DNA from: an uncultured Acidobacteriota bacterium
GTDB taxonomy: Bacteria > Acidobacteriota > CAIWXX01
Length of the DNA stretch: 37,556 nt
Direction of reading: 5' to 3'
Assembly: GCA_903916735.1 (NCBI GenBank)
Contig: CAIWXX010000081.1
Coordinates: forward strand, 1-37,556
Shown here piece after piece: positions 114 through 29,775 of this stretch (within the stretch, counting starts at the first letter, position 1; every line of letters begins with the position of its first letter). A program made the translations under genes and the position numbers. The notes beneath the pieces were generated by a model. It was not told the DNA's origin, did no database searches, and saw nothing but the letters and a program-made list of their open reading frames with translations.

Positions 114-1556
114 TTATTGGCCGGTGAACGCCTTGATGCAAACACTTGCTTTCGCAGCAATGTCCACCATATCGTACCATTTTGTGCCATCTAGACTTAT
201 GAAAGTTTCGCCTTTTTTTGCATTGACTTTGCTCCATATGCCTGCCCAATTATCTTCGACCGGAATCGGGTACCCATACTTCGGAGTTGTGTATTTAATA
301 ACAACCGAGAATTTTTTTCCGGGCGTGATGTTGGCAATGGACGGCAATTTGATTGTGTGATATCCGGCTGTTGATATCGTTCCGCTGGCTTGTGCAATAA
401 GACTGCCTGTTCTTGGATTGGTAGTCGATGAGACGTTGTTGTAAAGGTAGATTTGGTAGGCAGTCTTAGGCACTGCAGCATAAGTCGATATCGCTTTGAT
501 CGGTTTCGTTGTTGAAATGGCTTTGAAAATGCTGGCACCCCATGCTGTGTATACCTTGCCGCCTTCAGCTCCGAAACTGTCAGTATCACCCAGCGGGTCG
601 TATTGATAAAACCCACTGTAATTAGTTGTTGGTGATGGTGTCACGAAAACGGAACCAACTGATAGGTTGAAATCATAGTAGGACATATAAAAGTAGCCGT
701 TGTCACCGGAGCCGGTGCCCCAGCTGTTTTTAATAAGAAAGGCACCATTACCATTCGGAGTTTTCGAAAACTTGCTTTTGCTGAAATTGTCGTCCCATCC
801 GACGCACGTGACGGCATGCCCTGCGTTCGATACTTTGGATGGGGAGTAATATGTGCTTCGGTCGGCATTCCAACATGACGAGTCCACCTGAAAGCTCACA
901 TAAACGCCACCATAGGTCATAACGGCTTGCTTTATCGTTGAATTGTCCGTCTTGCTTTTCCTATCCGGAAGCCAAATGACATCCTGGATGTGTTTCTGAA
1001 CAGAGCCGGCTCCATCGAATTCGGTGTAATATGGATATGGGTAATCCGACTCATTGTATGGGCCACTCCACCGGGCCAGGTAGGCGGTGGATTCAATAGA
1101 ATTGCCGCCGTCGCAGATTCCCCAATCCCATCCGGCATTTTTAATCAGATGATATTCGGAAAAGTCCCGTTCTTCTCCGGGCATCATATTGGATTCCATA
1201 GAACCGAATGTGGCAAAGGCCCAGCAGGAACCGCAGCCGCCCTGATCCTTGACATCTGTGAGCTTACCGTGCGTGCGCAAATCATAGGACGACGGCACAG
1301 CTTTATGCCCGTCGAAAATCCGCATTCCTCTCATGTAAGAAAAATCGATGCTTGGGGGTATTGATCCAAGCCCGTGCCCATCGGGCGTCATAAACTGGAC
1401 TTTCCCCTCTTTCAGGGCTTGCTGATACTTGATGAATTCCGGATTTGGCGGTGCTGATGAGAATTGATTTTTCTGTGCCGCAAAGCCGAGAATCGGCGAA
1501 AAAGTAATTATGCCGATCACGAGAACGGAAAGAAACAACCACACCTTCCTTGACAT
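114..1556 (-). CDS. Secreted papain-like (C1A) cysteine protease with C-terminal lectin-like domain
   Basis: This 480-residue exported endopeptidase has an N-terminal signal peptide (basic SRK, hydrophobic residues about 5-25, cleavage near residue 26-27). It then has a short propeptide-like stretch and a papain-family domain. The catalytic set is visible: Gln105 and Cys111 in QGGCGSCWAF, His247 in AGHAVTCVGWDD, and Asn277 in KNSWG. After about residue 300 comes a beta-rich region of about 170 residues, consistent with the lectin-like domain often attached to bacterial C1A proteases. The ATG is preceded by GGGGGAG at 4 nt spacing, which supports this start. It is a single gene transcribed away from the two giant envelope genes at 1870-13084 and is closed by the hairpin at 60-86. 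Function as a secreted or periplasmic protease is secure at family level; the substrate is unknown. Confidence 0.92.
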   Translation of the reverse strand: MSRKVWLFLSVLVIGIITFSPILGFAAQKNQFSSAPPNPEFIKYQQALKEGKVQFMTPDGHGLGSIPPSIDFSYMRGMRIFDGHKAVPSSYDLRTHGKLTDVKDQGGCGSCWAFATFGSMESNMMPGEERDFSEYHLIKNAGWDWGICDGGNSIESTAYLARWSGPYNESDYPYPYYTEFDGAGSVQKHIQDVIWLPDRKSKTDNSTIKQAVMTYGGVYVSFQVDSSCWNADRSTYYSPSKVSNAGHAVTCVGWDDNFSKSKFSKTPNGNGAFLIKNSWGTGSGDNGYFYMSYYDFNLSVGSVFVTPSPTTNYSGFYQYDPLGDTDSFGAEGGKVYTAWGASIFKAISTTKPIKAISTYAAVPKTAYQIYLYNNVSSTTNPRTGSLIAQASGTISTAGYHTIKLPSIANITPGKKFSVVIKYTTPKYGYPIPVEDNWAGIWSKVNAKKGETFISLDGTKWYDMVDIAAKASVCIKAFTGQ

Positions 1557-1869: not shown

Positions 1870-4800
1870 ATGCAAGCAAAAGGCCACTCGTTTGTCGCCC
1901 TCTCTTTCATCTCAACATTCTGCATTTTTCACTCGGTCGTTGGGGCTGGAGGCACCGAGGCCGTTGCGCCGCCGATGACCGAGCTTGATCGGACTTCGTT
2001 CGAAGCTCAGGGCACTCATGATGCCATCCTGACCGTCCATCGATATGGCCGGTATTCACTCGCCACCAAAAGCGGCCAGGGGACATCGCTGCAAATCTAC
2101 GACCGGATGATGGGCCCCGGCGAGATCAGCGGCGCGCCGGGAAACAAAGATGGGCGGATCGATACTTATTTCGATGAGGGCAACTACCGCATTGAGTTGC
2201 GTTCACATAAAAAAGGACAGGGCGAGGTTGCACTCTCGGTCCATTCCTTCAAGGAGCTCAACCAGCCGCAAGCGCCGGTGCTCATCGAAAACAAGCTGGA
2301 ACAGGGATTGCTGGATGATTATCAGCAGATCTCTTACTGGATTGAGATCAAGGAGCGCCGGTTTGTCTACATTGAAGCAGAGGGGCGTAACCTGAGCGAT
2401 CTCCGCCTCTGGCAGGATGGGTCCTGGATGCTGGATGCCGTGCCGACCGTTCAAGCCAGAGAGAGCGCTGTGGGCCACCCTCAGACTGATTGCCTGCTCG
2501 TTGCCGATCTCACTCCCGGCTACTATCTTCTGACAGCATATGGCGGCCGGCCGAATGCCTGGGCCAAGGAAACCGATGAACATCCATTCCATCTGAGACT
2601 CGGGATTCCGGAGCTTGGTTCCGTTTCACGGCTGCAGCTCAGCCTCTCTCCTTTTGGCATGGACCGCTTCCTCGTTCCTCAGGAAGCGAATTTTTTCCTT
2701 TTACAGCTGGCGAAGAAAAAGGATTTTCGTCTCGATATTCAATACTTCAATCCGGGCGATGTCCCTGGACGAGCCCAGGCCGGCGCCGTCATCAATAAGA
2801 AATCCCAGGACCCTGAATGCGCAATCGAGACTCATAGCCCCAATCCCTACAGCCTCGTCACTGTTTCCGGAGCACCCGGAGAAGCATACATCCTGCAAGT
2901 ATTTCGAAAAGACTATGAGAGAACTTTTCGAAAAACCGGAGACTATTGGATTTCGACGATTCAATCCGGTTACATGGATGACGATATCGATGCATCAGGT
3001 ATTCTCGTGTCTTCCGAAAACACGGGATCACATGTCGAACCGCTCACAGCCGATGTTGTCCATTTGAGCGCCAACAAAGGATGGGCGCGACGTTTCAATC
3101 TCCTCGGCGTGGAGACGCTTTTTTTCTTTGTCGATGAGGCCGGTGAATATGAAATCAAGTCGACAGGAACAACTGCTCTCTACCGATTCGAACCCTTCAT
3201 GATCAATGTGCCGCAAGAATACCGGACCCCCGAATCCCAACCAAGTGGAGGAGTCTTCGATTTGGATCGTGGATATTGGGTGCTCACGATCTCGCCCGAG
3301 AACAAGGGGATTCTCGCTGTGGTCGTTCAGAAGCGCGGCGGACTCATCAAGACGCTTCTCGACAAGCTCATGTCCACGGATCTGCCTCCTCCTGAGCCCG
3401 TCAAAGGAGCCTGCCAGCTCGGCCGCGTTCATCTCGATGACCGCTTCTCATACACTCTCTACACGAATACTCAGGGCGGCAGCCAAGGGCTTATTCTGCG
3501 GCCTTACCCGCTGAAGTTGGAAGATCCATTGCCCCTGGTTCTGAAACCTGCCGAAGAGGAAAAGGTGGATTTCATTGCATCGGAGGAAAGCGAGCTCAGT
3601 GCGGCCACCATCACGACCGGCATCTCTTTCACATCGACGCTAGACGGGAACCCCTGTGGATCCTCCTGCCTGGTCTCTGCCGGTGAACATTCCATCGTGG
3701 TCCGTAATGATTCCCCGCGGACGCAAATTTTTTCACTGAAGATGACTTCAATTCGCATTCTCTCGAACAGCAAACCAGCGTATCTCACAAGCGGCGTCCT
3801 CGAGAATTTTCCAAAATTCCCCGTGATGACCGAAAAAACGCCGCTGTTCGGCGACTACGGTTATAACGAAAAGAAGACTTTCTTACTGACCGTTGCTTCC
3901 CCGGCTCTTTATCGGATCGAAACCAGTGGATTGCTGAAGACGGCCTGTGTCGTGCGAACGCGCACGAGAACGAAACTGTTCTCGGCTGAAGCCAACGGAG
4001 TCGGACGCAATGCGCTCATTCAGCAATTCCTGAAGGATGGTGAATATCAGGTCACGGTTGAACCCCTCGATCGTTCGGCGGGGCATGCCGGCATCCAGTT
4101 GATGCGCACCAGTGTCCTGGAAGGCGGCGCTCTCACTCTTGGGAAAGATGCCAAGGAAGATGTGCCGGCGGGCTCGGCCGTTCGCTACTCGTTCCATATT
4201 CCTGAGGCGGGTCGCTACAAACTCACGACCTTTGGCATCGATAAGAAATTTCGCTGCCGCATCGAGGATGCCGACGGCTGGCCGTTGAGGGATCCAAGCG
4301 GTGATGCCGATCTGACATGGGACTTTCAATCAGGCGATTTTCATTACATGACTCTGCCGCTCGATGTCGACAGCCTGCGCGTGGCACATGTGCAGCTAGT
4401 GAAACAGGAGCGGACGGCTGAAGGAAAAGGCCCTCATCAGTTGTTCCTCAATCAGGCACTCGGCAATGTGTGGCGCGAGAGCCCGGATAGAGCGCGCGAT
4501 CTCTATGACCTGAATATTCCAGCCGATATCGATGCGACTCTGACGCTGGGCAATGATCAGATGCAGGCTTTCATCAAACGGAAAGATGGCACCGGATTCA
4601 GCGTCGTTGATACCGCAGCACCGGGCCAGGCATGGTCCGGGGCGCTGGGCGCTGGAGATTATCGGATTGAAGCCGAGTGCAGCCGTCCGAACGATTACCT
4701 GTCCTACTCGATCAAGCTCGACTCAAAGCAGCTTGTGGATGGCACTCATAAGCAGATCAGCGTGCCGGGCTCTGTGGATGTGAGAGTTGGGAAAACCGGC

Positions 4801-7143
4801 ATTGTCGAAATGGCTTCAACCGGGCCTCTTGATGTGCGCGCCACTCTCTCATCCGACGCCGGCATCATCGATGCGAATGACGATTCCTTCAATGATTGGA
4901 ATTTCAGAATCGCCCGAAAGCTGGAAGCGGGATGGTATCATCTGCAAATTGATCCGGTTGGAAAATCCGAAGGCAGGACAACAGTCATGCTGAGCATGCC
5001 GGAGGAAGTCGAGAAAGAAGCCGTCACACTGCCGATCGATATGACTTTGGATCTGCAGGGTAAGATCAATGTTTTGCCTGTTGCGGGAAACCCCGGGATC
5101 ATGTCCATCAAAGCCGGCGGCGGATCCTTTGTCGGTTGTATTCTCGAACGCGTCGACGGCGATGCTCGAAAACTTATCTGGCAGCAAAACGGAAAGACCT
5201 GCGAAGTGTCGATACCTTTGGATCAATCCGGCAAGTATCAGCTTCGTCTCTGGTCGGCGGATCATCAGAGTGAAAACGTGAGGTTGCAGGCAAGCAGTGA
5301 AAGCCCTGCTGTGCAGCCGGCCGACGATTTTTCCAGGCCGACAATGTTGCGACCTGCTTTGATGAACGGATCCTACTCCACGATTCGTCTCATAAGGAAC
5401 GCGACAGCCGGGACATTCAAAATTCGGCCGTCAGAAGGCTTCTCATATTCAACAGGCACAGATCAGCCTCTCGTGCCGGCGACTTCGGATCTGGTGGCCC
5501 TTCCTTCAGGCCTGATGGCTGTCCGCTGGGAGTGCAAAGGCGCGCAGGAATTACGAGTTCAGGCAAGCCGGTACACGTTACAAAAAGATGAAAGATACGA
5601 AACATCTGTTGTTCGCAGCCAACCACAATGGGTCGATGTCATCAATGATGCAAAAGGCTCGACGCTCATTGATGCCCGCGTTGTTCAGGGATTGCCCGCT
5701 TGCGCCTTGATATCGGAAAATGAAAATCCATTTCTTTCGAGCTCGTTCGCGAGGATAGGCGATATCTGCATGACTATCGCTCCGCCGGGAGTTGCGCACA
5801 CGAAAGTTGTTATCTGGAATGCAGATCCGGATGCGCCTGCATCCAGCACTTTCAACGCTGGTGTGCAATGTTTTGCTAAAAGCGCTGAAACCATGCTGCC
5901 TTACGGCCGCACAAACGGGAGCGTCGATGCATCGAAAGAAGTGACCTGGACTCTTCCATCGGAACCCAAGCAGATCGACGTGGCTCTCGACCGAGGCATG
6001 GTCGCATATGTGTGGGATGGGCTGCAGGTTGTGGATATGGCATTCGCAGGTGAGTCTCCTTATCACCATACATTCATGACCGGCGCGACACACCTCACTT
6101 TCCTGGCGCGCGCGCCCGGCCTTTTCGAAATCGATATGCTGAAGAGGGAAGTGCCGGCGCCTCCGCTTCTTCTCGCAGATGAAAGCCTTTATGAACTGAC
6201 CGAGGCATCTCCCGGCATGATTCTCATGACAATTCCGCGGAAACTATCGCCATCGACGGTGCTGTGGATCGCAGGGGATGGGATCGAATCCTGTGCATGG
6301 ACCGATGAAATCGGCATTGTTCATGAAGGCAGCCGGCTGGAAGTCGGAGGGCACAGCGGCAAGGTGATTGTGAAACATACCGGCGGCTTTGTGAAAATCT
6401 GGACCGGGCTTGGGAGTCGAGAGATGCAGGCGAGGTGGGGAAAGATTGACGAAGGGCCGCTCCGCCAGATCAATCCGCAGTCGGTTGTCCCGCTGGCAGG
6501 AAACGTCCAATGGTACGGTGTGATTCTGACATCTCCGTCCGTCATTCACTGTGCGACCAGCCGGCCGGCTGTTGTCGGCATCAGCAGGAAGATCGCCGGC
6601 TCGCTGCCGCAGGCTATCGATGCGCACTTTTCGGCGCAGCCTGATGGAGATGCATTTCTCAAGGTCGCCGAAGGCCTGCCTGCAGCTTCGCTCGATTTCT
6701 TCCTCGAACCAGGCAACTACATCGTCGGCGTACGCGCACCTAAAGGCGAGACCCTGACAGGAACGGCTGAGTATTCTCACACGCCGGTGATACCGATCTC
6801 GAAGTTGTTCGGCCCGGAAACACTCATCAGAGGCGGCGAGTCAATGACCTTCTCTTTCACCCTCGCTCAGCACGGCAACATCGGCATCGGGCTGAAGAGT
6901 GAAGGCGAGGCGTTGAGTTGCGAGTTGCTGAGCCGCGATGAAAAAGCGATCGGCAAAGGCATCCAGCAATTCGTGGAACTCGATGCCGGGACGTATCTGA
7001 TGCGTGTCGCACTGTCCGCCGGCGAGGAGCCACAGAGATTCACACCGGTTGTCGTCGGTATCGAGCCGCCGGGAATGGGGCCGCCCGAGGATTATCTGCA
7101 CGATTTCCTGCAAAAAATCGATCAGGCTGAGGGAGGTCATTAA
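1870..7143 (+). CDS. Giant exported protein of tandem beta-sandwich-like units, partner of the macroglobulin
   Basis: This 1757-residue protein has an N-terminal signal peptide (hydrophobic to about residue 25, cleavage near VVGA) and no later membrane segment, so it is periplasmic or secreted. I do not recognise a named full-length family. The body repeats a strand pattern G-x-[YFW]-x-[LIV]-x-[VIL] at the end of about ten units, for example GNYRIELRS, GYYLLTAYG, GYWVLTISP, GEYQVTVEP, GDYRIEAEC, GWYHLQIDP, GKYQLRLWS, GNYIVGVRA and GTYLMRVAL. The first unit (residues about 45-125, with DGRIDTYFDEGNYRIEL) resembles the bacterial pre-peptidase C-terminal (PPC) beta-sandwich. No catalytic motif is visible. 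AAGGA lies 7 nt before the ATG. The stop codon is separated by one base from the macroglobulin ATG, so the two are surely an operon and probably translationally coupled. A role as scaffold, ligand-binding partner or presenter for the macroglobulin is inference only. Confidence 0.85.
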   Translation: MQAKGHSFVALSFISTFCIFHSVVGAGGTEAVAPPMTELDRTSFEAQGTHDAILTVHRYGRYSLATKSGQGTSLQIYDRMMGPGEISGAPGNKDGRIDTYFDEGNYRIELRSHKKGQGEVALSVHSFKELNQPQAPVLIENKLEQGLLDDYQQISYWIEIKERRFVYIEAEGRNLSDLRLWQDGSWMLDAVPTVQARESAVGHPQTDCLLVADLTPGYYLLTAYGGRPNAWAKETDEHPFHLRLGIPELGSVSRLQLSLSPFGMDRFLVPQEANFFLLQLAKKKDFRLDIQYFNPGDVPGRAQAGAVINKKSQDPECAIETHSPNPYSLVTVSGAPGEAYILQVFRKDYERTFRKTGDYWISTIQSGYMDDDIDASGILVSSENTGSHVEPLTADVVHLSANKGWARRFNLLGVETLFFFVDEAGEYEIKSTGTTALYRFEPFMINVPQEYRTPESQPSGGVFDLDRGYWVLTISPENKGILAVVVQKRGGLIKTLLDKLMSTDLPPPEPVKGACQLGRVHLDDRFSYTLYTNTQGGSQGLILRPYPLKLEDPLPLVLKPAEEEKVDFIASEESELSAATITTGISFTSTLDGNPCGSSCLVSAGEHSIVVRNDSPRTQIFSLKMTSIRILSNSKPAYLTSGVLENFPKFPVMTEKTPLFGDYGYNEKKTFLLTVASPALYRIETSGLLKTACVVRTRTRTKLFSAEANGVGRNALIQQFLKDGEYQVTVEPLDRSAGHAGIQLMRTSVLEGGALTLGKDAKEDVPAGSAVRYSFHIPEAGRYKLTTFGIDKKFRCRIEDADGWPLRDPSGDADLTWDFQSGDFHYMTLPLDVDSLRVAHVQLVKQERTAEGKGPHQLFLNQALGNVWRESPDRARDLYDLNIPADIDATLTLGNDQMQAFIKRKDGTGFSVVDTAAPGQAWSGALGAGDYRIEAECSRPNDYLSYSIKLDSKQLVDGTHKQISVPGSVDVRVGKTGIVEMASTGPLDVRATLSSDAGIIDANDDSFNDWNFRIARKLEAGWYHLQIDPVGKSEGRTTVMLSMPEEVEKEAVTLPIDMTLDLQGKINVLPVAGNPGIMSIKAGGGSFVGCILERVDGDARKLIWQQNGKTCEVSIPLDQSGKYQLRLWSADHQSENVRLQASSESPAVQPADDFSRPTMLRPALMNGSYSTIRLIRNATAGTFKIRPSEGFSYSTGTDQPLVPATSDLVALPSGLMAVRWECKGAQELRVQASRYTLQKDERYETSVVRSQPQWVDVINDAKGSTLIDARVVQGLPACALISENENPFLSSSFARIGDICMTIAPPGVAHTKVVIWNADPDAPASSTFNAGVQCFAKSAETMLPYGRTNGSVDASKEVTWTLPSEPKQIDVALDRGMVAYVWDGLQVVDMAFAGESPYHHTFMTGATHLTFLARAPGLFEIDMLKREVPAPPLLLADESLYELTEASPGMILMTIPRKLSPSTVLWIAGDGIESCAWTDEIGIVHEGSRLEVGGHSGKVIVKHTGGFVKIWTGLGSREMQARWGKIDEGPLRQINPQSVVPLAGNVQWYGVILTSPSVIHCATSRPAVVGISRKIAGSLPQAIDAHFSAQPDGDAFLKVAEGLPAASLDFFLEPGNYIVGVRAPKGETLTGTAEYSHTPVIPISKLFGPETLIRGGESMTFSFTLAQHGNIGIGLKSEGEALSCELLSRDEKAIGKGIQQFVELDAGTYLMRVALSAGEEPQRFTPVVVGIEPPGMGPPEDYLHDFLQKIDQAEGGH

Positions 7144-7144
7144 T

Positions 7145-10100
7145 ATGAAAAAAATTGCTCTCGTCATCCCATTCATCGTGTCCTGCTGTTTGATCGCCTC
7201 GGCTGAAACTCCCCAGGCAGGAGGCAAGATCAGGATCGTCCCCGAGAGTTTCGTGCGGGGGTACGACCCAGTCACAATTTTCTTCCCGAATGCGACAGGG
7301 CCGGCGGCCGCCGGTCCCGAGGATCATCCTGAAAAATATCTTCGCAGCGAGCCCGCTCAGCCCGGCGAATTCCGCTGGATCGATGCTCGCACGCTGATCT
7401 TCAAGCCGACCATTCCTTGGCCGCCGTTGGAAAGATTCAGGTGGAGTGTCGGCGAGTACCACAAGACACTCACGACGATGATGATCCCGCCGACGACCTT
7501 GTCGCCGGCCGACGGCGCAAACGAACTGGATCCTGTGCAAGAGGTCGTTCTGACTTTTCGGGAGCCGGTCACGAAACTCGATTCGATGGTCGGTTTTGAA
7601 ATCCGGCCGCTCCCGGGTATCGACAAGCGTGGCCCGCGCCGGCTGACGTCGGATGACTTTCTCATTAAACCCCTCGAGCGTGCGTCGGCCAAAGATCCGG
7701 TTAGCTATGTCTTCAGATTCAAGAAACCAATCGAAGACGGCGTGAGAGTGTTGATCCATATCAGGCTTTCATTGGACGACTCCTCCGATTCGCTGGCCGA
7801 GTACTCCTTCTCGACGAAGCAGCCATTTCGAGTTCTCTCGGCTGGCTGCACCAGCGGTACAACACAAGAGGTACAACGGCCTTGGCAACAGCAGGAGCAG
7901 CCGGAAGAATCCACAACCGCCGATGAGGAATCCACAAATGAAGAAGGCAGCGAAGAGACGGAAGGCGAAGTGACGGAGGATGCGCAACAAGAAGAGCCGC
8001 AGGCCGAGGAGTCGGCGACGCCATCCTATGAGTCGCAGAATCTGCTTCCCTTGACAATCAGTGGATCAAGATACAGCCGCGAGCAAGCGGTCAACGGCGG
8101 GACGGGAACTCCGAAGATTGCCGTTCTCTTTTCATCAGAACCTGAAGCACTCAGCCTTTCGGCCGTCAAATCGCTCATCCGTTTTACGCCGTCGATTCGA
8201 GATATGTCGTTCACGCAAGCCGGGCCGTTCCTCTATATCACCGGCAAGGTTGAAAAGGACACTGTCTATGCCGCGACAATTCAGCCATCGCCGATCAAAG
8301 ATCTCCACGGCCGGGTTCTGAAAATGACCGGCATCTCGGAATTCCACATTTACTTTCCACATCAGGAGCCCTTTCTGCGATGGTCTCAAAGCGCAGGAAT
8401 TGTCGAACGCTTTGGCCCGCAGATGTTCCCAATGTCGGGGCGAGGTGAATCCAAGGTGGACTTGCGCATCTATCGAGTCGATCCGCTGGATCGGAATTTC
8501 TGGCCGTTCCCGGCGAGCCCGGTGAGCGTGAAGGAGTCGGATCGCCCGCCGGGCCCCGGTGAGGAGCCTCCGTCCGCGGACACTCTTCAGAACTATATCG
8601 ATGCCGATCAACTGGCAGTGCGGCTGAAGCTGCTGGGCTCGCCGCCTGTTTCGAAAATCGTGGCGCTTCCGCTGCGCAAGGAAGGAAGCTCAACCGACTT
8701 CGGATTAGCGCTCAAGGAGCACCTCCGGGCCATCGCCGGTCCGGATGCACCGGGCACATACCTTGTCGGTGTCCGCCGCCTCGGAGAAGAATCCGAGCGA
8801 CAGTATGTTCGCCTTCAAGTGACGGATTTGTGCCTGTCCACGGTGGAAGAAGAGCGCTCAATTGAGTTCCTGGTAACATCGCTGAAAACCGGCAAGCCGA
8901 TTCCGGGTGCAAAGGTCCTGGTTGAGGGCATCCCTGCGAATCAGGACGGCACGGCCTATGCCGCCATCATTTCAGGAATAACGGATGCACGCGGATTGTT
9001 CCGGTGGGAACACCGCGAGAAAGCCGAAGTTGACTTGCGCCGCATCGTCGTTAGAAACGGCGATGACGCGCTCGTCCTTCAACCCAACGATCCACCCTAT
9101 TCCTTCTCGAACAACCACTGGTATGGCCCAAGCGGCATCTGGCTGAACTGGATCAACAGCGATCCGTATGTCGATCCCGAAGCATCCATGCTGATGTGCC
9201 ACATCTTGACGGAAAGGCCCGTTTACAGGCCCGAGGAGGAGGTTCACATCAAGGGATACTTGCGGATGCGTGAGAAGGGTCGCCTCAAACTCCCGCCGGC
9301 AAGCAACTACGAACTCCTCATCACGGCGCCGGGCGAGGGCGAGAAGGTCTGGAATTTCCCGGTGACACTGACGAGCGAAGGCAGCTTCTATTACAAATTC
9401 CAGGACAAGGATCTGCCGACCGGAGAATACACGGCCACGCTACGCGACATCGATTCACAGGTGACATATGGGCATGTGGACTGGAAAATGGAGGCATACA
9501 AGATCCCGCGTTTCGAAGTCAATATTCACGGCCCGGATCGAGTTCCGATGGATCGTGAATTCACGATGTCGATGACGGCGGATTATTATGCGGGAGGCCG
9601 CGTCGTCGGCCAGCCCGTGCTCTGGCGCGTAACGCAATTTCCATATGCCTACGTTCCTGAAAAGCGTGAAGGTTTCGTTTTCTCTTCCGATGAACGGTTC
9701 AGCCGACCGAGCCGGTTCAGTGGAAGCGGAGCTATCGAGAAGAGCGACAAGACGGATGATTCCGGCGCGTCGAAAATTGCAGTTAACCCCGCTCTTGAGA
9801 TCGATGGAAAGCCGCGACAGTATGTTTTCGAAGTGACGGTGACCGGCGCCGACGAACAGACCGTGTCGGCAACGCGGTCTGTCATCGGACTGCCGTCATT
9901 TGTGCTCGGGCTGCAAGTCGACAGGTTCCTCAAGAAGACGACGACAATCACGCCGAAAATCATCGCGATCGATGTGAATAACAAGTTGTTGGCGGGGCAG
10001 GATGTCGCGGTGCGGCTGCTGGCGCGTGAATGGCATTCGCATCTGCGAGAGACGGATTTCGCCGAGGGGCAGGCCAAATATGAAACGGATATGGTGGATC

Positions 10101-13084
10101 GCGAGGTTTTTAAGACAACGATCCAGACGGCTGATCAACCTGTGTCGGTGACACTGCCTGCCGAGAAGGCTGGAATCTACGTTGTCGAACTTTCATCGCG
10201 CGATCAACTCGGGCGCCTTCAACTCGTCACAACCGATCTCTATGTCGCCGGGGATGAACCGATTTCGTGGAAAAAGCCGGAAGCAAACGTGTTCGAAACC
10301 GTGACGGACAAGACGGAATATGTGCCCGGAGAGACGGCGCAGATACTGCTCAAGAGCCCTTTCCAGCAGGCCGACATTCTGGCCGTGATCGAAGGGCCGG
10401 ATGGTAATGTCTATCAGGAATTTCCGATTGTCGGAGGAAAAGCGGTTTTTGTTCTGCCGATTAAAAATGAATACAACCCGCAGATTCCGGTTCATTTTTT
10501 GCTGATGCGAGGACGCATCGTGGGAGGCGCCGCGACGGCCGGCCCGGTCGATCTCGGCAAGCCGTCAACAGTTGCCGCAACACAGTGGGTGAAGGTGAAG
10601 CCGGTCGACAATGTCGTCAATGTTGAGTTGAAGCATCCCGACAAGGCGACACCGGGACAGGAGATCTCGATGCAGATCAAGCTGTCCAGCCCTGATGGGA
10701 AGCCGCTTCCAGGCGAAGTGACATTATGGCTCGTCGATCAGGCCGTGCTCTCGCTTGGCAAAGAAAAGCGCCTCGATCCGCTGCCCTCCTTCATCAGCGA
10801 CGTCAAATCCCATATCGCCATCCGCGACACTCGCAACAAAATCATCGGCGAGCTCGTGACGGTAGAGAACCCTGGAGGCGGCGGGGCCGAAGGCGAAGCG
10901 GAATTGCTCGACAAGGTCACCGTGCGCAAGGAGTTCAAAACGGTTCCTTATTACAACCCCCGCATCATGGTCGACAAGACGGGCATGATCGAAGTGAAGA
11001 TCAAGCTTTCGGATGATCTGACGATTTTCAAGGTGAGGGCGGTTGCGATCAGCGGGCCGGATCGTTTCGGCTCGGCAAAATCGCAAATCGCCGTGCGCTT
11101 GCCCGTCATCGTGCAACAGGCGCTGCCGCGCTTTGTGCGGATCGGGGATCGGCTGGTGGCGGGTGGCATCGGCAGGATCGTCGAAGGAGAAGGCGGCCTG
11201 GGGAGCTGCCAGGTACAGGTGGATGGCGCGAGCCTCGAAGGGGATAGCAAGCACGCGATCCAGTGGATCAAGGATAAGCCGGAAAAGCTCTTCTTCCCGA
11301 TGACAGTCGATGTGCCGAAGGTCGATCAGGGGCGTGACGTCAACGAACTGACAGTGAGGTTGGCCGTCATACGGGATTCGGACAAGGCGAGCGACGCATT
11401 CGAAGTGAAACTGCCGATTCTGCGCGATCGTGATCCCTTGAGTGTGGAAGTCTTCAAAGAGCTCAACTCCGGGACGCCACTCATGTTTCCATCGATTCAA
11501 GAAAAAGTGCGCGAAGGGAGCGCTCGGCAGTCGATCTTGATCACCGATCAGGAAGCGTTACTCAAAATGATCAGCGGCCTCGATTACCTCTATCAGTATA
11601 ATCATCTGTGCACGGAACAGCGTGTCAGCCAGTCCTTCCCGGCGGTGGCTCTGAAAGGAATTTATGACACATACAAGATCCGCGCGCCAGAGAAGAAGCT
11701 GAACGAAGTTCTTGCCTACACGTTCGACTATCTCGGGAAGACACTCAAGCCCAACGGCCTGTATTCCTACTGGCCTGGAGGCGATGGGCGTGTGACATTG
11801 ACGGCCTATGTGGTCGAGTTCCTGAGTGAAGCCAAGAAGGCCGGTTACCAGTTCCCACCGAAATTGATGGAGAAGCCTGTGGCCGCGCTGAAGGAGGCGT
11901 TGAGGTCGGATTATGCGCACTTCATCGATGGAGCGTCGTTCATGGAACGGTGCGAGGCGCTGGCGGCTCTGAGCAACGCCGGCCAGTTCGATGTCTCGTA
12001 CGGAAGTGAGCTCGGGAAGAAGGCCGGGTTCCTCGATCTTTACAGTGAAGCCAAAGTACTGCAAGCCTGCAATCTGGGGCAAAAATGCTCGAAGGATATT
12101 TTCGAAAAACTTCGTAAAGATCTCTGGGACAACACACTCTTTAAATTACGCGATGGGAGCGAAGTCTATGGCGGGCTGCAGTCGCGTATCAAGAGCTGGG
12201 GCGGGCAGGCGCTGTCATCCGAAATCAAAACGCAGGCGGCCATGATCCGCGCTCTCTATCCAAAGGATGCGGCGAATCCCAAGTTCCAACTGATGGTGAG
12301 CGATCTCATCGAAAGCGGCGAAAAGGACGGGTGGGGCAACACGAACACCAATGCGGCGGCCCTGCTGGCACTTCGCGACATCATTTCAACACCGAGGAAA
12401 GACATGCCGGCCGCCGAATTGTCGGTCGACTTCGGCGACAGCAAGAATCCGCTGCACATCGGGGCCGATCAGCCGACGGCTTTTCTGCTAAGCCGAGACG
12501 TTCGGCAAGGCAAAGTGAATATGACATCAGGTGGAGGAAAACTCTACGCGCGGATGAATGTCACCTATCTGCCGCAGGCAATGGGCGATCAAGTTGCAGC
12601 CAAGAACGAAGGGTTTGTTGTGACGCGCGAGATCATCCGGGTCTCGACCGGCTCCGAGCCCAACACGAAGGAATGGATCGAAAAGCCCGGGACGACGATC
12701 ACATGCCGGCTCGGCGACATCACCGAAGAACACATCCAGGTCATCAACCCCGACGATCGGAATTATGTCGCGGTCATCGCGCCGTTTGCCGCGGGACTCG
12801 AACCGATGAACCCGAACCTCGCAACGTCACCAAAGGAAGCTCAGCCAAGCGGCAGTCTGACGCGCGATCCATCCTACGCAATGTACATCGATGACGAAGT
12901 CCGCTTCTATTATGAACAGCTTCCAAAAGGCACATACGATTTCTACTTTAGAATCCGCGCCATGACCGAAGGCTCCTACGTCCACCCGGCCGCTCACGCC
13001 GAAATGATGTACCAACCGGCAACGAAGGGAAACTCGGCGGGGGCGAGGGTGGTGATTGAAAAGGGGGAGGAAACAGATAAATAG
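7145..13084 (+). CDS. Bacterial alpha-2-macroglobulin with thioester motif
   Basis: This 1979-residue exported protein is of the alpha-2-macroglobulin family, periplasmic traps that bind attacking proteases through bait cleavage and a reactive thioester. The ATG at 7145 was chosen because GGAGGT lies 7 nt upstream and it opens a signal peptide ending IASA (about residue 20). The frame stays open upstream but inside the previous gene. Visible parts are: Ig-like N-terminal domains; an acidic Glu-rich insert (about residues 245-295); an MG2 signature ERPVYRPEEEVHIKG (about 690-704); the core A2M segment with NPRIMVDKTG (about 1268) and DDLTIFKVRAVAIS; thioester Cys1489 in CTEQ; and a C-terminal segment ending AHAEMMYQPATKGNSAGARV, typical of the family. 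An IVSC sequence at 11-14 could be read as a lipobox but is too close to the N-terminus to trust. It is longer than E. coli YfhM (about 1650 residues), and no penicillin-binding protein 1C gene, the usual neighbour of one subfamily, is adjacent. Confidence 0.93.
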   Translation: MKKIALVIPFIVSCCLIASAETPQAGGKIRIVPESFVRGYDPVTIFFPNATGPAAAGPEDHPEKYLRSEPAQPGEFRWIDARTLIFKPTIPWPPLERFRWSVGEYHKTLTTMMIPPTTLSPADGANELDPVQEVVLTFREPVTKLDSMVGFEIRPLPGIDKRGPRRLTSDDFLIKPLERASAKDPVSYVFRFKKPIEDGVRVLIHIRLSLDDSSDSLAEYSFSTKQPFRVLSAGCTSGTTQEVQRPWQQQEQPEESTTADEESTNEEGSEETEGEVTEDAQQEEPQAEESATPSYESQNLLPLTISGSRYSREQAVNGGTGTPKIAVLFSSEPEALSLSAVKSLIRFTPSIRDMSFTQAGPFLYITGKVEKDTVYAATIQPSPIKDLHGRVLKMTGISEFHIYFPHQEPFLRWSQSAGIVERFGPQMFPMSGRGESKVDLRIYRVDPLDRNFWPFPASPVSVKESDRPPGPGEEPPSADTLQNYIDADQLAVRLKLLGSPPVSKIVALPLRKEGSSTDFGLALKEHLRAIAGPDAPGTYLVGVRRLGEESERQYVRLQVTDLCLSTVEEERSIEFLVTSLKTGKPIPGAKVLVEGIPANQDGTAYAAIISGITDARGLFRWEHREKAEVDLRRIVVRNGDDALVLQPNDPPYSFSNNHWYGPSGIWLNWINSDPYVDPEASMLMCHILTERPVYRPEEEVHIKGYLRMREKGRLKLPPASNYELLITAPGEGEKVWNFPVTLTSEGSFYYKFQDKDLPTGEYTATLRDIDSQVTYGHVDWKMEAYKIPRFEVNIHGPDRVPMDREFTMSMTADYYAGGRVVGQPVLWRVTQFPYAYVPEKREGFVFSSDERFSRPSRFSGSGAIEKSDKTDDSGASKIAVNPALEIDGKPRQYVFEVTVTGADEQTVSATRSVIGLPSFVLGLQVDRFLKKTTTITPKIIAIDVNNKLLAGQDVAVRLLAREWHSHLRETDFAEGQAKYETDMVDREVFKTTIQTADQPVSVTLPAEKAGIYVVELSSRDQLGRLQLVTTDLYVAGDEPISWKKPEANVFETVTDKTEYVPGETAQILLKSPFQQADILAVIEGPDGNVYQEFPIVGGKAVFVLPIKNEYNPQIPVHFLLMRGRIVGGAATAGPVDLGKPSTVAATQWVKVKPVDNVVNVELKHPDKATPGQEISMQIKLSSPDGKPLPGEVTLWLVDQAVLSLGKEKRLDPLPSFISDVKSHIAIRDTRNKIIGELVTVENPGGGGAEGEAELLDKVTVRKEFKTVPYYNPRIMVDKTGMIEVKIKLSDDLTIFKVRAVAISGPDRFGSAKSQIAVRLPVIVQQALPRFVRIGDRLVAGGIGRIVEGEGGLGSCQVQVDGASLEGDSKHAIQWIKDKPEKLFFPMTVDVPKVDQGRDVNELTVRLAVIRDSDKASDAFEVKLPILRDRDPLSVEVFKELNSGTPLMFPSIQEKVREGSARQSILITDQEALLKMISGLDYLYQYNHLCTEQRVSQSFPAVALKGIYDTYKIRAPEKKLNEVLAYTFDYLGKTLKPNGLYSYWPGGDGRVTLTAYVVEFLSEAKKAGYQFPPKLMEKPVAALKEALRSDYAHFIDGASFMERCEALAALSNAGQFDVSYGSELGKKAGFLDLYSEAKVLQACNLGQKCSKDIFEKLRKDLWDNTLFKLRDGSEVYGGLQSRIKSWGGQALSSEIKTQAAMIRALYPKDAANPKFQLMVSDLIESGEKDGWGNTNTNAAALLALRDIISTPRKDMPAAELSVDFGDSKNPLHIGADQPTAFLLSRDVRQGKVNMTSGGGKLYARMNVTYLPQAMGDQVAAKNEGFVVTREIIRVSTGSEPNTKEWIEKPGTTITCRLGDITEEHIQVINPDDRNYVAVIAPFAAGLEPMNPNLATSPKEAQPSGSLTRDPSYAMYIDDEVRFYYEQLPKGTYDFYFRIRAMTEGSYVHPAAHAEMMYQPATKGNSAGARVVIEKGEETDK

Positions 13085-17919: not shown

Positions 17920-18411
17920 TCAAGGATTCCATAAATCGGTCCGTTGTCCATGGCTGGTGAACCAGACTTTGCCGCTTTCTATTTCCAGGACCAAAGTCCG
18001 AGGGATTTGGCCCCCGACATCCTCGGCCGAAATCAGGATGCCATTCTTCCAGAAGAGCTTTCGGGCAATCATGATATTTCGATTCCCGATGTCAAAGAGA
18101 TCCCCGCCTCCGAAGACGCGAGCGCCGCCGGCCATGATGACTCGCATGTTCTCCTTTCGCGCACCCATTTTGTAGGCGCTCACGAAAAGGGAAGGTATGC
18201 CGGTATCTCCGAACATAAATGGGTTGGCCGCCGCCTTTTCTTGGTCCAATTTGGATTGAGGGAGCATGTAATGCAGGATCCCGCCAACGTGCGCATGCGG
18301 ATCATGGATAGCGATCCCGATGCACGAGCCCAAGGCATGCGTGATGATCTGATCTCCAATTACCTGGGATAGCTTCATGTCGGAGACACCCACGATGTGC
18401 CTTATGCCCAT
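17920..18411 (-). CDS. cheD: Chemoreceptor glutamine deamidase CheD
   Basis: This 163-residue enzyme deamidates selected receptor glutamines and in many bacteria also binds CheC. Catalytic residues are present: Thr24 and Cys30 in THALGSC, and His47 in GGILHYMLP. The later family segment (VIMAGGARVFGGGD, ARKLFWKNGILISAEDVGG) is intact. A purine-rich GGGGGAGG lies close to the ATG; an alternative start at Met12 is possible. It sits between cheR and cheY in the leftward run. Compare the degenerate paralogue at 34868-35365. Confidence 0.95.
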   Translation of the reverse strand: MGIRHIVGVSDMKLSQVIGDQIITHALGSCIGIAIHDPHAHVGGILHYMLPQSKLDQEKAAANPFMFGDTGIPSLFVSAYKMGARKENMRVIMAGGARVFGGGDLFDIGNRNIMIARKLFWKNGILISAEDVGGQIPRTLVLEIESGKVWFTSHGQRTDLWNP

Positions 18412-18565
18412 GGCCTCCCCCCCGGACTGCTCAATCCCTTACTCGTACCCGTTCCCTTTCGTTTTCCCGCTTCCGATATTTGCAGGCAAAGCAGATCAGG
18501 TAAGGATTCGGACATGTGAAAGGATATTGATTCTCGGCGCCATCGCATTGACATCATCGCATCGC

Positions 18566-19384
18566 TCAACCCGCCGGTTTGATATACACGGACGGGTGTA
18601 CGCACCGGAGAGTGCTGACGAAACCGGTCAGGCTCTCGGAGTGACCGACGAAGAGGTAGCCCCCCGGCTTAAGGAGCCGTATGAATTCATCCAACAGGTT
18701 CTTCCGGACAGCGGTGTCAAAATAGATCATCACGTTCCGGCAAAAAATTGCGTCCATCGGTCCACGCATCGGGAAGGGCGTCACCGAAAGGTTCAATCGT
18801 CTGAAGACGATCAGTCTCTTGACTATATCCTTAATCCTGAATAAGGCATCCCGCCCTCGTCCCTCCTGCTCGAAATACTTCGCTCGCCAGGCTGCAGGAA
18901 CATCTTTCACTTTAACCGAAACGTACTCTCCTCTCAGGCATTCCTTCAGTATCCGAGTCGAAATGTCGGTTGCCAGGATCCGCTGATTGATCCTCGCATC
19001 ACCCATCGCATCCAAAACCGTCATCCCGATCGTATAGGGCTCTTCGCCCGAGGAGCATCCGGCCGACCAAAACCTGAATTGTCGTTGTCCGTCGGAAAGC
19101 CACTGGCACACTAACTGCTTGAGCAGCTCGAAATGGTCAGGTTCTCTAAGGAATCGAGTGACATTGGTCGAAATAGCATCAAGCAAGTGGATGATTTCTT
19201 CGCCTGTATCGTCTTCGAGGATAACCCTGAGATAGTCACTGGATTCTTCGACTCCGAGCACCCGCATGCGTTTTGCGATTCGGGCGCTCACCAGAGTTAC
19301 TTTGTTATCGTTGAGGGTAATGCCGCTCTTGTCGTAGATGATCTTTACAAGTTGGTTATAGACGGCTCTATTCATGTGCGTCAC
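18566..19384 (-). CDS. cheR: Chemotaxis protein methyltransferase CheR
   Basis: This 272-residue SAM-dependent methyltransferase acts on receptor glutamates. It has the N-terminal helical domain (about 5-75), NVTRFLREPDHF (variant of the usual N-x-T-x-F-F-R segment), the SAM-binding loop FWSAGCSSGEEPYT (about 105-118), and IFCRNVMIYFD plus LLKPGGYLFVGHSESL near the C-terminus. The start is a GTG with AAGGAA 11 nt upstream; an ATG three codons later is an alternative. Its first bases overlap a possible 46-codon gene (19368-19508). It probably balances CheB on the MCP at the right edge. Confidence 0.95.
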   Translation of the reverse strand: MTHMNRAVYNQLVKIIYDKSGITLNDNKVTLVSARIAKRMRVLGVEESSDYLRVILEDDTGEEIIHLLDAISTNVTRFLREPDHFELLKQLVCQWLSDGQRQFRFWSAGCSSGEEPYTIGMTVLDAMGDARINQRILATDISTRILKECLRGEYVSVKVKDVPAAWRAKYFEQEGRGRDALFRIKDIVKRLIVFRRLNLSVTPFPMRGPMDAIFCRNVMIYFDTAVRKNLLDEFIRLLKPGGYLFVGHSESLTGFVSTLRCVHPSVYIKPAG

Positions 19385-19508
19385 ACGCGGTCGGGAGTTC
19401 CTTCAGAATGATCGCTACTCGAACAATCATATCAAAAATGATCAGAAAGGCTGTTAGATAAGGATAGGGCATTGCCGCAGCTATTGCTCGTTTGGTGAGT
19501 GATTTCAT
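19368..19508 (-). CDS. Possible 46-residue membrane peptide overlapping cheR
   Basis: This short open frame lies in the 208-bp gap between cheA and cheR. It reads MKSLTKRAIAAAMPYPYLTA, then a hydrophobic run FLIIFDMIVRVAIIL, then a short polar tail. The profile (basic N-terminus, one helix of about 17 hydrophobic residues) suits a small inner-membrane peptide. Its TAG lies 15 nt inside cheR in another frame, so it could couple to cheR translation. Weak points are the lack of a good ribosome-binding site and the short length. No family is recognised. Confidence 0.35.
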   Translation of the reverse strand: MKSLTKRAIAAAMPYPYLTAFLIIFDMIVRVAIILKELPTACDAHE

Positions 19509-19592
19509 GCCTGCATCCGATGGTGTGCCCCCCTGAGGGTCATGTCAGTGCCTTTTCTCCAACCCGCGCATCTTTACTCGCCTGCACATTGC

Positions 19593-22274
19593 TCATTGGT
19601 TCGCGAGCCTTATGATCTCGCCGATATCGAGGATAAGACTCACCGACCCGTCAGTCATGATCGCCCCTCCGGCTATCCCTTGCATGTCTCCGATGCCGTC
19701 GCCCAGTTTCTTGATGACGACTTGCTGCTGATCAATGATGTCATCGACCAATAGGCCGACTCGTTTTCCGAGCGCATCTTCGACGATCAGGATGATGCCG
19801 TCGGCAACTTGCTGCCGGGCGCTCGTTTGCTCGAAAATTTCGGCGAGCCGGGCCAGCCTCAGAAGATCGCCGCGGACTTCCACCATTTCACCTTTGCCGA
19901 TAACCGTCAAAATTTGATCTTCGCGGGGTTTTATCGATTCGAGTATCGATAGCGTCGGTACGATGTACCGCTGATTGTCCAGCTTGACGATCATGCCGTT
20001 AATGATGGCGAGCGTCAGGGGCAGTCGAATTGTAAAACGGGTCCCCTTTCCGGCCTCAGTGTGAATATCAACCACTCCACGCAATGCCTGGATGTTCTTC
20101 CTGACGACATCCATCCCGACACCTCTTCCCGAAATGTCCGTCACTACCTTGGCTGTTGAGAAGCCGGGCATGAAAATAAACTGGCAAATTTCTGAGTCGG
20201 CAGGCCGTGCATCGGCTTTGCAGAGACCCTTCTGTATCGCCTTCTGAAGGATTGCCTGCACATCCAATCCCTGGCCGTCATCTTCGATTTCGATGCATAC
20301 ATTTCCGGCCTTGTGATAAGCCCGCAAGGTAATCCGGGACTTGGTGGGTTTTCCTGCAGCCGTTCGATCCTCGGTCGATTCGATTCCATGGTCAAGGGAA
20401 TTCCGGATCATGTGGATAAGCGGATCGCTGATATTCTCGACGACCGACTTGTCGATTTCGGTGTCTTCACCTTCCATGATGAACTCGACATCCTTTTCCA
20501 TTTTTTTCGAAAGATCGCGGACGAGCCGTGCCATTTTCTGGAACGTCGGCTTGATGGAGATCATTCGGAGCGACATGGAGAGTTCCTGTATCTGACGCAT
20601 GACGAGGGCCGCGTGTGCGATTTTCTTTTCAAGGACGTTGTTGCCTGTCTGACGCACGGCTGAATCGGCGTATACCATGGATTGCGCGATGACAGCTTCA
20701 CCGATGGCATCGATGAGTTGGTCCAGCCGGGTGATGGGAACCTTGATGGTTTCTTCGACTGCTGCCGCCGCGCGACCGGCTATTTGGCTGGCGAGTGCCG
20801 CACCCACGTCACGGGCTGGAATTCCTTTCTCTGCGATGAGAATCTCGCCGAGCTTGCGCATATCTCCGGCTTGCTGTTTCCGGAAAGCATCCTCGATTTC
20901 GCGAGGTGAGACTGAGCCGTCTTCCGCCAGTATTTCTCCGATCTTCTTTTCCGGAAGCACGGCGTGAACTCGATCCATAGGAGGTTGGATGGGCGGGGGC
21001 ATGGATAATCGATTGATTGTGGATTGAAAATTTCCAGGGATGAAATATGAAGCTCCGCCAAGCGCTCCTTCGACCGAGTTGATCAACCCTCGCATACAAT
21101 CCACTGCCTCAAGCAGAAGGTCGATGTGTGCAAAGGAGAGCGTTAATGTTCCTTTGCGTGCCTGATCCATGAGGCTTTCCATGTTGTGCGCCAGAAGTTG
21201 GATTTCTTGCATTCCAAGAAAGCTCGATACCCCTTTGATCGTGTGACAGCCTCTGAAGACGCTGTTGAGATGATCGGCGTTTGTCGGTTCTGTTTCAAGG
21301 TTCAGAAGCAACGGGTCTATCTTGTCAAGGTGGTCACGAGCTTCAGTAATGAAATCCTTGACAATGGACGGGTCTCCTGTGAACGCCGTACCTCCCAAAA
21401 CAGGCTCGGATTGGAGTGACTCCTGTCTCATGGTTTCTTCCACCTGAGTTCCGGGCGCTGAAACGGGCTCAGAGCCTTGAGGCGGCTTCTCAGACGGTTT
21501 CTTTTTCTCTTCACACAACGACTGGATCAGCAGATTGACTGTAGCATCCTGTAGCCGCAAGACGGTGCCGGTCGCCATCTGGCTGAACCGTTCGGCCAGG
21601 AAATCCTTCAACTTCAGGAGTGCATCTGCCGACATGCGGTCGTTTTCGATGCATTCCTCGACCCCATGAATAAGCTTCGAATAGTCGCTCAGGTCCAACA
21701 CGCCCAGTTCGCCCTTGAGCGTGTGGAGGCGGCGTTTGATTTCAGCCATAGCCTGAGTGGAACCCTTTTCGAACTCGATGCAGCAGACCTCAAAATCCTC
21801 GAGAGTTGACTGTTGCTGTGCAGCGAACTTCAGGAGCAGATCATCCGGAGATCGAGCCCGATCGACTGATGAAGGCCGGCCCTCAAGGAGCGATGCCCCT
21901 TCCGGTGGATTTGTGTTGTCCCATTCGTCATCCATCGATTCGTCTCTCTTCTGTACCACGCGCGTTTGAGAGAGTCCCTCAATGTACTTGCGCATCTTGT
22001 CGACGGCTTCGCCGAGCTTTGAACAACCGCCGCCGAAGTCGGCATCACCTGCAATCATCCGTTCCGCAAGTTTTGCCGTGCGCGATGCAAGTGCGATGAA
22101 AGCCGAGGGGAGACCGCCTTCGAGTGAAAGGTCCCTGAGCTTGGCCTGGATCTGCGCAAGGTCGGACAGATCGCTCTTGTCGAGCATCGGAATGCCGGCG
22201 GCGATGTCGTTGAGCAATTCTCTGAGATTGAGGGGAGATCTTTTGGTATCGCTTTTTGCTTCCTGCTTCTTCAT
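19593..22274 (-). CDS. cheA: Chemotaxis histidine kinase CheA with two Hpt domains
   Basis: This 893-residue kinase phosphorylates CheY and CheB. The start at MKKQEAK follows AAGGGG at good spacing. Order of parts: an unassigned helical N-terminus (about 15-105); Hpt1 with His184 in LHTLKGELGVL; Hpt2 with His344 in CHTIKGVSSFLG; a linker (443-497) with two tandem GspE-N-like units (KKIGEILAEDG, RKLGEILIAEK); dimerisation helices (about 510-575); an ATPase domain with N box HMIRNSLDHG (621-630), DDGQGLD and GRGVGMDVV; and a C-terminal CheW-like domain (about 755-893). No P2-type CheY-binding domain is obvious. No separate cheW lies in this window, so receptor coupling needs a cheW elsewhere or relies on this domain. 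Confidence 0.95.
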   Translation of the reverse strand: MKKQEAKSDTKRSPLNLRELLNDIAAGIPMLDKSDLSDLAQIQAKLRDLSLEGGLPSAFIALASRTAKLAERMIAGDADFGGGCSKLGEAVDKMRKYIEGLSQTRVVQKRDESMDDEWDNTNPPEGASLLEGRPSSVDRARSPDDLLLKFAAQQQSTLEDFEVCCIEFEKGSTQAMAEIKRRLHTLKGELGVLDLSDYSKLIHGVEECIENDRMSADALLKLKDFLAERFSQMATGTVLRLQDATVNLLIQSLCEEKKKPSEKPPQGSEPVSAPGTQVEETMRQESLQSEPVLGGTAFTGDPSIVKDFITEARDHLDKIDPLLLNLETEPTNADHLNSVFRGCHTIKGVSSFLGMQEIQLLAHNMESLMDQARKGTLTLSFAHIDLLLEAVDCMRGLINSVEGALGGASYFIPGNFQSTINRLSMPPPIQPPMDRVHAVLPEKKIGEILAEDGSVSPREIEDAFRKQQAGDMRKLGEILIAEKGIPARDVGAALASQIAGRAAAAVEETIKVPITRLDQLIDAIGEAVIAQSMVYADSAVRQTGNNVLEKKIAHAALVMRQIQELSMSLRMISIKPTFQKMARLVRDLSKKMEKDVEFIMEGEDTEIDKSVVENISDPLIHMIRNSLDHGIESTEDRTAAGKPTKSRITLRAYHKAGNVCIEIEDDGQGLDVQAILQKAIQKGLCKADARPADSEICQFIFMPGFSTAKVVTDISGRGVGMDVVRKNIQALRGVVDIHTEAGKGTRFTIRLPLTLAIINGMIVKLDNQRYIVPTLSILESIKPREDQILTVIGKGEMVEVRGDLLRLARLAEIFEQTSARQQVADGIILIVEDALGKRVGLLVDDIIDQQQVVIKKLGDGIGDMQGIAGGAIMTDGSVSLILDIGEIIRLANQ

Positions 22275-22384
22275 AGAAGTCAACCCCTTTTTTCCGAGGA
22301 CATCTCTGGGCTGCAACACGATTGTGAGCTTTCCAGTAACAAGGACGCGGGAGACGAGGTGAGCGATCGATGATCTTTCATAGC

Positions 22385-24436: not shown

Positions 24437-24445
24437 GATCTCCGG

Positions 24446-24886: not shown

Positions 24887-24903
24887 GGATATTGACCTCC
24901 TTG

Positions 24904-29441: not shown

Positions 29442-29455
29442 GGTATCCCCACTGA

Positions 29456-29481
29456 AAATGTAGATCGATGGATCTATATTT
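29456..29481. promoter_or_regulatory. Hairpin or operator just upstream of the leftward kinase run
   Basis: AAATGTAGATC and GATCTATATTT form an 11-bp inverted repeat (one wobble pair) around a GATG loop, 15-40 nt before the ATG at 29441. It could be an operator for a dimeric repressor or a leader RNA hairpin that influences translation of the first kinase. Confidence 0.45.
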
Positions 29482-29703: not shown

Positions 29704-29775
29704 CTGAGCACCGTAGCGACGCAGGCGACGAAGCAGATGCGCCATTCTCGCGGGATCTGAGCGGAGTATGGTCCC

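What the first reader, a model, noticed from the sequence alone, without database searches (positions are those of the whole stretch)
1870..13084. Two-gene giant envelope module: repeat beta-sandwich protein coupled to a thioester macroglobulin
The 1757-residue exported protein ends one base before the start of a 1979-residue alpha-2-macroglobulin with an intact CTEQ thioester. Known bacterial macroglobulin neighbours are penicillin-binding protein 1C or YfaS-type accessory genes; I know of no described partner like this one. About ten beta-sandwich-like units ending in G-x-[YFW]-x-[LIV] strands suggest a long scaffold or ligand-binding rod. The pair may act as a two-component protease trap or surface defence unit.
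Basis: partly seen in the sequence, partly recalled or inferred. Interest (0 to 1): 0.7.

Follow-up and report, generated by a model that had tools for sequence, protein, structure and literature searches.

The report
Giant partner protein for bacterial macroglobulin
A very large, unnamed exported bacterial protein is inherited, across at least ten phyla, together with one particular kind of protease-trapping macroglobulin and usually with a dedicated cell-wall-building enzyme, which points to an undescribed three-part envelope protection system.

Summary
The 1757-aa ORF (1870-7143) and the 1979-aa CTEQ macroglobulin (MG; 7145-13084) are both real, one base apart, with the MG ribosome-binding site inside the upstream gene. 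The upstream protein ("UP") matches no Pfam or NCBIfam family above cut-off. AlphaFold (pLDDT 92/91) gives an all-beta tandem array of about 14-15 units, resembling PPC/collagen-binding and CUB jelly-rolls.

In 72 of 74 UP loci with a readable 3' side the next gene is an MG; in 56 of 63 the gene after that is PBP1C. In 396 genomes of the window's phylum, UP and this MG subtype occur in exactly the same 19. UP-linked MGs form one clade (SH-aLRT 100) apart from other bacterial MGs, and UP-linked PBP1Cs form another (99). The window's genome keeps that PBP1C on a different contig. The thioester cysteine was lost at least three times while UP stayed. UPs of some rhizobia carry an N-terminal LprI domain.

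Best reading: a tripartite periplasmic protease-trap and wall-repair module, with UP as scaffold. Linkage is shown; binding and function are inferred. It is a new variant of the known type I A2M-PBP1C system.

The parts
1870..7143 (+). UP: giant exported protein, 1757 aa, tandem PPC/CUB-like jelly-roll beta-sandwich array; unnamed family
   Evidence: no Pfam or NCBIfam family above cut-off; AlphaFold pLDDT 92.3/91.1; Foldseek
1870..1947 (+). probable Sec signal peptide of UP (residues 1-26, no lipobox)
   Evidence: sequence; judged by eye, no predictor run
4480..5010 (+). one of the most conserved stretches of UP (residues ~870-1045; W868, D877, Y946, D1009-W1010-N1011, Y1023)
   Evidence: conservation profile over 58 homologues
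7090..7140 (+). UP C-terminal tail (residues 1741-1757), following a conserved GPP motif and forming a predicted helix; a candidate docking segment (inference)
7132..7136 (+). Shine-Dalgarno of the MG gene inside the UP coding sequence (translational coupling)
7145..13084 (+). UP-clade bacterial alpha-2-macroglobulin, 1979 aa
   Evidence: tree
7145..7207 (+). MG signal peptide, probably signal peptidase I (ASA-E); the overlapping I-V-S-C is probably not a lipobox, since relatives lack the Cys
7844..8044 (+). acidic low-complexity insert in the MG N-terminal part (about residues 234-300)
   Evidence: sequence
10301..10756 (+). A2M bait-region domain (BRD), residues 1053-1204
   Evidence: Pfam PF07703 E 5.9e-18
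11609..11620 (+). CTEQ thioester motif, residues 1489-1492
12611..13018 (+). bMG10 domain
   Evidence: Pfam PF17973

Best explanation
UP, this clade of macroglobulin and a matching clade of PBP1C form one co-inherited periplasmic module. SHOWN by sequence: gene order UP-MG-PBP1C, tight spacing, reciprocal presence of UP and MG, shared pairwise divergence, and separate clades for the MG and PBP1C members. INFERRED: UP is secreted to the periplasm and folds into a long chain of about 14-15 PPC/CUB-like jelly-roll units. It binds the (mostly non-lipidated) MG directly and holds it near the inner-membrane PBP1C and the peptidoglycan, doing the job of the lipid anchor of E. coli YfhM (and of MagA/B/F for the type II MagD). 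When a foreign protease breaches the outer membrane and cuts the bait region, the MG closes on it (covalently where CxEQ is kept, as here) while PBP1C re-synthesises wall; UP keeps trap and repair enzyme together and may itself bind the target or the glycan. In the window's genome the PBP1C gene has moved away but is retained.
For: 72/74 UP loci are followed by an MG and 56/63 then by PBP1C. In 396 same-phylum genomes UP and UP-clade MG (>=1893 bits; others <=522) occur in the same 19. One MG clade, SH-aLRT 100, and one PBP1C clade, 99, which includes the window genome's relocated copy G000:C85:26116-28500. Pairwise identity correlations over up to 63 loci: UP-MG 0.98, UP-PBP1C 0.97, MG-PBP1C 0.96. 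No fourth conserved neighbour. UP-linked MGs mostly lack a lipobox, while E. coli YfhM has LAGC. The fold is an array of ligand-binding-type jelly-rolls. UPs of some rhizobia are fused to LprI (PF07007), a domain tied to lysozyme resistance and peptidoglycan homeostasis (PMC7933661). The A2M-PBP1C defence-and-repair hypothesis and periplasmic partner proteins that stabilise MagD are published (PMC4498604, PMC5764988).
Against: No binding, location or activity data exist here for any member. The high identity correlations would also arise from simple joint descent of linked genes. Two UPs (L037, L039) have no MG nearby, and seven UP-MG pairs lack an adjacent downstream PBP1C, the window included. 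PPC/CUB-like folds are generic and do not fix a ligand. The lack of a lipobox was judged by eye, start codons are uncertain for many relatives, and the window MG has an ambiguous IVSC. LprI's link to lysozyme is not general: Salmonella ScwA has the domain but no role in lysozyme resistance (PMC7933661).
Confidence: 0.58

Rival explanations
1. The module is mainly a peptidoglycan-synthesis complex: UP and MG are structural regulators of PBP1C, guarding or positioning it at sites of wall damage, and protease trapping is secondary or lost in several lineages.
For: PBP1C belongs to a dedicated clade. The thioester cysteine was replaced (STEQ, SSEQ, SAEQ, GTEQ, NVEQ, TTEA, NAEA) in relatives with 4 changes on the tree, 3 forced by supported branches, while UP stays. 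LprI fusion in some rhizobia.
Against: CxEQ is kept in most UP-linked MGs and in the window. In the window's genome PBP1C is no longer linked while UP and MG stay together, so UP-MG is the tighter pair.
Confidence: 0.22
2. UP is an independent periplasmic or surface rod (adhesin or glycan-binding protein) that is only co-transcribed with MG.
For: Tandem PPC/CUB-like units are common in adhesins and secreted enzymes (established knowledge; fold and profile matches). Two UPs occur without a nearby MG (L037, L039).
Against: Strict reciprocal co-occurrence in 396 genomes. Linkage to one MG clade only, conserved over at least ten phyla.
Confidence: 0.12
3. UP is the part that recognises the attacker: it binds target proteases or the invading cell's envelope and presents them to the MG bait region (a receptor rather than an anchor).
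For: CUB/PPC-type folds often bind protein or glycan ligands (established knowledge; fold matches). The UP C-terminal half is more variable (28% mean column identity against 35%). Thioester loss in some lineages could be compensated by a second binding protein.
Against: The most conserved stretches are spread over residues 61-240, 660-1020 and 1620-1740, which fits fixed internal partners at least as well. No direct evidence.
Confidence: 0.15

Closest known systems
Type I bacterial A2M with PBP1C (E. coli yfhM-pbpC, ECAM; Salmonella SaA2M)
   Same: MG domains, bait region, CxEQ thioester in the window copy; PBP1C next door in most relatives
   Different: A separate, well-supported MG clade. 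No clear lipobox in most UP-linked MGs, whereas YfhM has LAGC. An added giant partner gene, UP, absent from the E. coli locus. A separate PBP1C clade.
Type II bacterial A2M operon (Pseudomonas magABCDEF; E. coli yfaS operon)
   Same: An MG encoded with dedicated periplasmic partner proteins; some UP-linked MGs lack the thioester cysteine, as MagD does
   Different: The window MG has CTEQ; gene content differs (one giant UP plus PBP1C rather than the mag genes). UP's relation to MagA/B/F was not tested directly; UP shows no Pfam hit above cut-off.
PPC (PF04151) / collagen-binding and CUB jelly-roll domains
   Same: Fold of the repeat units: ColG s3a-s3b 5iku, Foldseek E 6e-7 and 3.5e-7, probability 1.0; weak PPC profile hits in 4 and 9 members
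   Different: No unit of the window protein reaches the Pfam PPC cut-off. The array of about 14-15 units has no whole-chain structural match (TM-score over the query <=0.17).

Membership tests
Type I bacterial A2M (ECAM-like) | MG domains, bait-region domain and C-terminal MG10 | tested here: met
   Pfam hits above cut-off
Type I bacterial A2M (ECAM-like) | CxEQ thioester motif | tested here: met
   CTEQ residues 1489-1492; presence of the thioester bond itself is not testable here
Type I bacterial A2M (ECAM-like) | adjacent pbpC gene (described in the literature as frequent, so not strictly defining) | tested here: not met
   No PBP1C gene follows the MG in the window, but the clade-specific PBP1C is on another contig of the genome and 56/63 relatives have it adjacent.
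Type I bacterial A2M (ECAM-like) | inner-membrane lipoprotein anchor | tested here: inconclusive
   Window MG has an ambiguous IVSC; its closest relative L008 and most others have no lipobox; no predictor run
Type I bacterial A2M (ECAM-like) | covalent trapping of a cleaving protease | not testable with these tools
   needs protein
Type II bacterial A2M (MagD/YfaS) | absence of CxEQ | tested here: not met
   CTEQ present in the window
Type II bacterial A2M (MagD/YfaS) | six-gene mag/yfa operon | tested here: not met
   flanks are a papain-family protease gene and a metallo-beta-lactamase-fold gene; no other conserved gene set near relatives
PPC domain protein (for UP) | Pfam PF04151 above gathering score | tested here: not met
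   no hit in the window protein; 13 sub-sequences of relatives match at E<=0.1, best 5.9e-6
PPC domain protein (for UP) | jelly-roll beta-sandwich of the PPC/collagen-binding type | tested here: met
   Foldseek to ColG s3, probability 1.0, (a generic fold resemblance)

The most novel reading that the evidence does not exclude
This is a third class of bacterial macroglobulin system, UP-MG-PBP1C, spread as a unit across diderm phyla. In it a giant jelly-roll scaffold replaces the membrane anchor and can make the thioester dispensable, so that trapping becomes a property of a two-protein cage rather than of the macroglobulin alone.
Probability: 0.33. Interest if true: 0.78.

Novelty: new variant of a known kind. 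Interest (0 to 1): 0.62.

Why it matters
Why bacteria carry complement-like macroglobulins, and how these work with PBP1C, is an open question. A giant, so far unnamed protein that goes with one macroglobulin clade gives that question a handle: delete or pull down UP and see what happens to MG and PBP1C. Rhizobium (plasmid-borne copies among others), Methylocystis and Arhodomonas carry the full three-gene unit in cultured strains, so the test is practical. Repeated loss of the thioester with UP retained offers a natural experiment on whether covalent capture is needed.

Tried and rejected
Homology of UP to the MG itself (for example a split macroglobulin): hhalign finds none. A solved-structure relative by sequence: none. 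An anti-phage defence family: no PADLOC hit. A fourth conserved gene: none beyond common families. Literature on UP: the open-access library holds papers on ECAM, SaA2M and MagD, and none of the passages read describes such a partner; Budd et al. 2004 is not held. A second taxonomic replicate of the co-occurrence test (order of Methylocystis, 170 genomes) had only the centre genome as a positive, so it adds only the score gap: 1887 against <=176 bits. Weak profile hits of UP in other Acidobacteriota proteins (E 1e-4 to 1e-6) are short single-unit matches (60-80 positions) in other reading frames and were not counted.

Full report
OBSERVATION. The window contains ORF 1870-7143 (1757 aa) followed after one base by an ATG at 7145 that opens a 1979-aa macroglobulin ending at 13084. 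The longer ORF call from 7004 is an upstream extension; the good ribosome-binding site (ggagg, 7132-7136) fits the ATG at 7145 and lies inside the upstream gene. Pfam finds MG2, the bait-region domain, A2M and bMG10 above cut-off in the second protein and nothing above cut-off in the first. CTEQ is intact. The repeat motif is far beyond chance (16 against 2.8 +/- 1.6) and 12 such sites are conserved in 58 homologues.

WHAT THE UPSTREAM PROTEIN IS. It has no NCBIfam match, no PDB sequence relative and no similarity to the macroglobulin. With 52 and 51 homologous sequences AlphaFold gives confident all-beta models for residues 28-865 (pLDDT 92.3, pTM 0.85) and 845-1757 (91.1, 0.75). Foldseek matches are local and fall mainly on tandem jelly-roll or CUB-like domains: ColG collagen-binding s3a-s3b, neuropilin, PCPE-1, SIDT1, with no whole-chain relative. 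Thirteen sub-sequences of relatives reach weak PPC (PF04151) scores. Self profile comparison confirms internal repetition. I call it UP.

SURVEY. A scan of 84,980 species genomes with two peptide patterns taken from UP, so blind to what lies next door, gave 75 loci from Acidobacteriota, Pseudomonadota, Myxococcota, Nitrospirota, Elusimicrobiota, Thermodesulfobacteriota, Fibrobacterota, SAR324, Eiseniibacteriota, Schekmaniibacteriota and others. Together with the same-phylum genomes, 74 UP loci can be read on the 3' side. In 72 a macroglobulin follows on the same strand, and of 63 with more than 2 kb beyond it 56 have PBP1C next. In one further case PBP1C lies just upstream of UP (L013). Close relatives (about 15 Methylocystis) inflate these counts, but 58 UPs remain at under 85% identity. 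The two exceptions, L037 and L039, have no macroglobulin nearby; in L039 UP itself is broken into two frames. In annotated Rhizobium plasmids the order is the same and the products are 'hypothetical protein' (or 'lysozyme inhibitor LprI family protein'), 'MG2 domain-containing protein' and 'transglycosylase domain-containing protein'.

RECIPROCITY. In 396 genomes of the window's phylum, UP is found in 19 (weak single-unit hits not counted). Macroglobulins scoring at least 1893 bits with the UP-linked profile are found in 19, with the next score at 522. The two lists are the same genomes. Any bMG10 macroglobulin occurs in 220, so this is a minority subtype that does not occur without UP in this sample, nor UP without it.

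TREES. Twenty-seven UP-linked MGs form one group (SH-aLRT 100) against 20 other bacterial MGs, including PBP1C-linked MGs without UP and E. coli YfhM. UP-linked PBP1Cs form their own group (99), and the window genome's PBP1C on contig C85 (26116-28500) falls inside it beside that of the same-family genome G001; a second PBP1C (C82) belongs with the non-UP set. So the window's genome keeps all three parts, with the third moved. Pairwise identities of UP and MG correlate at 0.98 and of UP and PBP1C at 0.97. Elusimicrobiota, Nitrospirota and Thermodesulfobacteriota units are 64-78% identical in UP and 73-85% in MG, which suggests transfer between phyla as a unit, with the usual caution about metagenome bins.

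CLUES TO FUNCTION. (a) Most UP-linked MGs have plain Sec signals without a lipobox, unlike E. coli YfhM with its LAGC; this was judged by eye. (b) The thioester cysteine is replaced in Rhizobium (STEQ), Plastoroseomonas (GTEQ) and several other lineages, with 4 changes on the tree and 3 forced by supported branches, while UP and the rest of the MG stay. Type II MagD also traps without a thioester and depends on a periplasmic partner protein for stability (PMC5764988). (c) UPs of four Rhizobium or Rhizobiales records and of YIM 77505 carry an N-terminal LprI domain above Pfam's cut-off, a domain linked to lysozyme resistance in Mycobacterium and to peptidoglycan homeostasis in Salmonella (PMC7933661). 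(d) No other gene is conserved nearby.

MECHANISM. [quoted passage not shown]). The simplest extension is that UP is the scaffold of this pair in its clade. That step is inference; only linkage, reciprocity, joint divergence and fold are shown. The main alternatives are that UP recognises the target, that the unit mainly serves wall synthesis, or that UP acts alone; the last fits the reciprocity poorly.

VERDICT. The module is larger (PBP1C included), probably periplasmic rather than surface, and its trap function is untested. I found no description of UP in the databases and papers I could search, which do not include most subscription journals.

Noticed in passing
window 114-1556 (-): Divergently transcribed papain-family (C1) protease with a C-terminal Lectin_like domain (PF18560), directly upstream of a gene pair that includes a protease-trap homologue; not seen as a conserved neighbour in relatives.
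   Followed up: partly
L045, L085, L082, L070 (STEQ); L041 (SSEQ); L067 (SAEQ); L063, L073 (GTEQ); L042, L034, L046, L051: UP-linked macroglobulins of full length in which the thioester cysteine is replaced; 4 changes on the tree, 3 forced by supported branches.
   Followed up: partly
L143:13509-19157, L082, L045, L070, L044: UP homologues with a fused N-terminal LprI (PF07007) domain.
   Followed up: partly
G000 contigs C12, C128, C82, C85: The window's genome encodes three macroglobulins and two PBP1C types, i.e. a second, ordinary type I set besides the UP set.
   Followed up: yes
L037:9902-14800 and 18053-19672; L039:9668-14989: UP homologues without any macroglobulin within about 9-10 kb downstream; L037 has a second UP-like fragment and in L039 UP is split into two frames.
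   Followed up: partly
L024:1093-7053: A Nitrospiria contig carries a second, only distantly related CTEQ macroglobulin a few kb upstream of the UP gene.
   Followed up: no
window 7844-8044: Acidic low-complexity insert (E/Q/T-rich) in the macroglobulin N-terminal part; a similar acidic stretch is in L008 but apparently not in L009 or L010.
   Followed up: no
window 19593-37511: Cluster of signalling genes on the - strand: CheA-like Hpt/CheW kinase, four PAS or receiver histidine kinases and a triple-HAMP chemotaxis receptor, with a LuxR-type regulator on the + strand.
   Followed up: no
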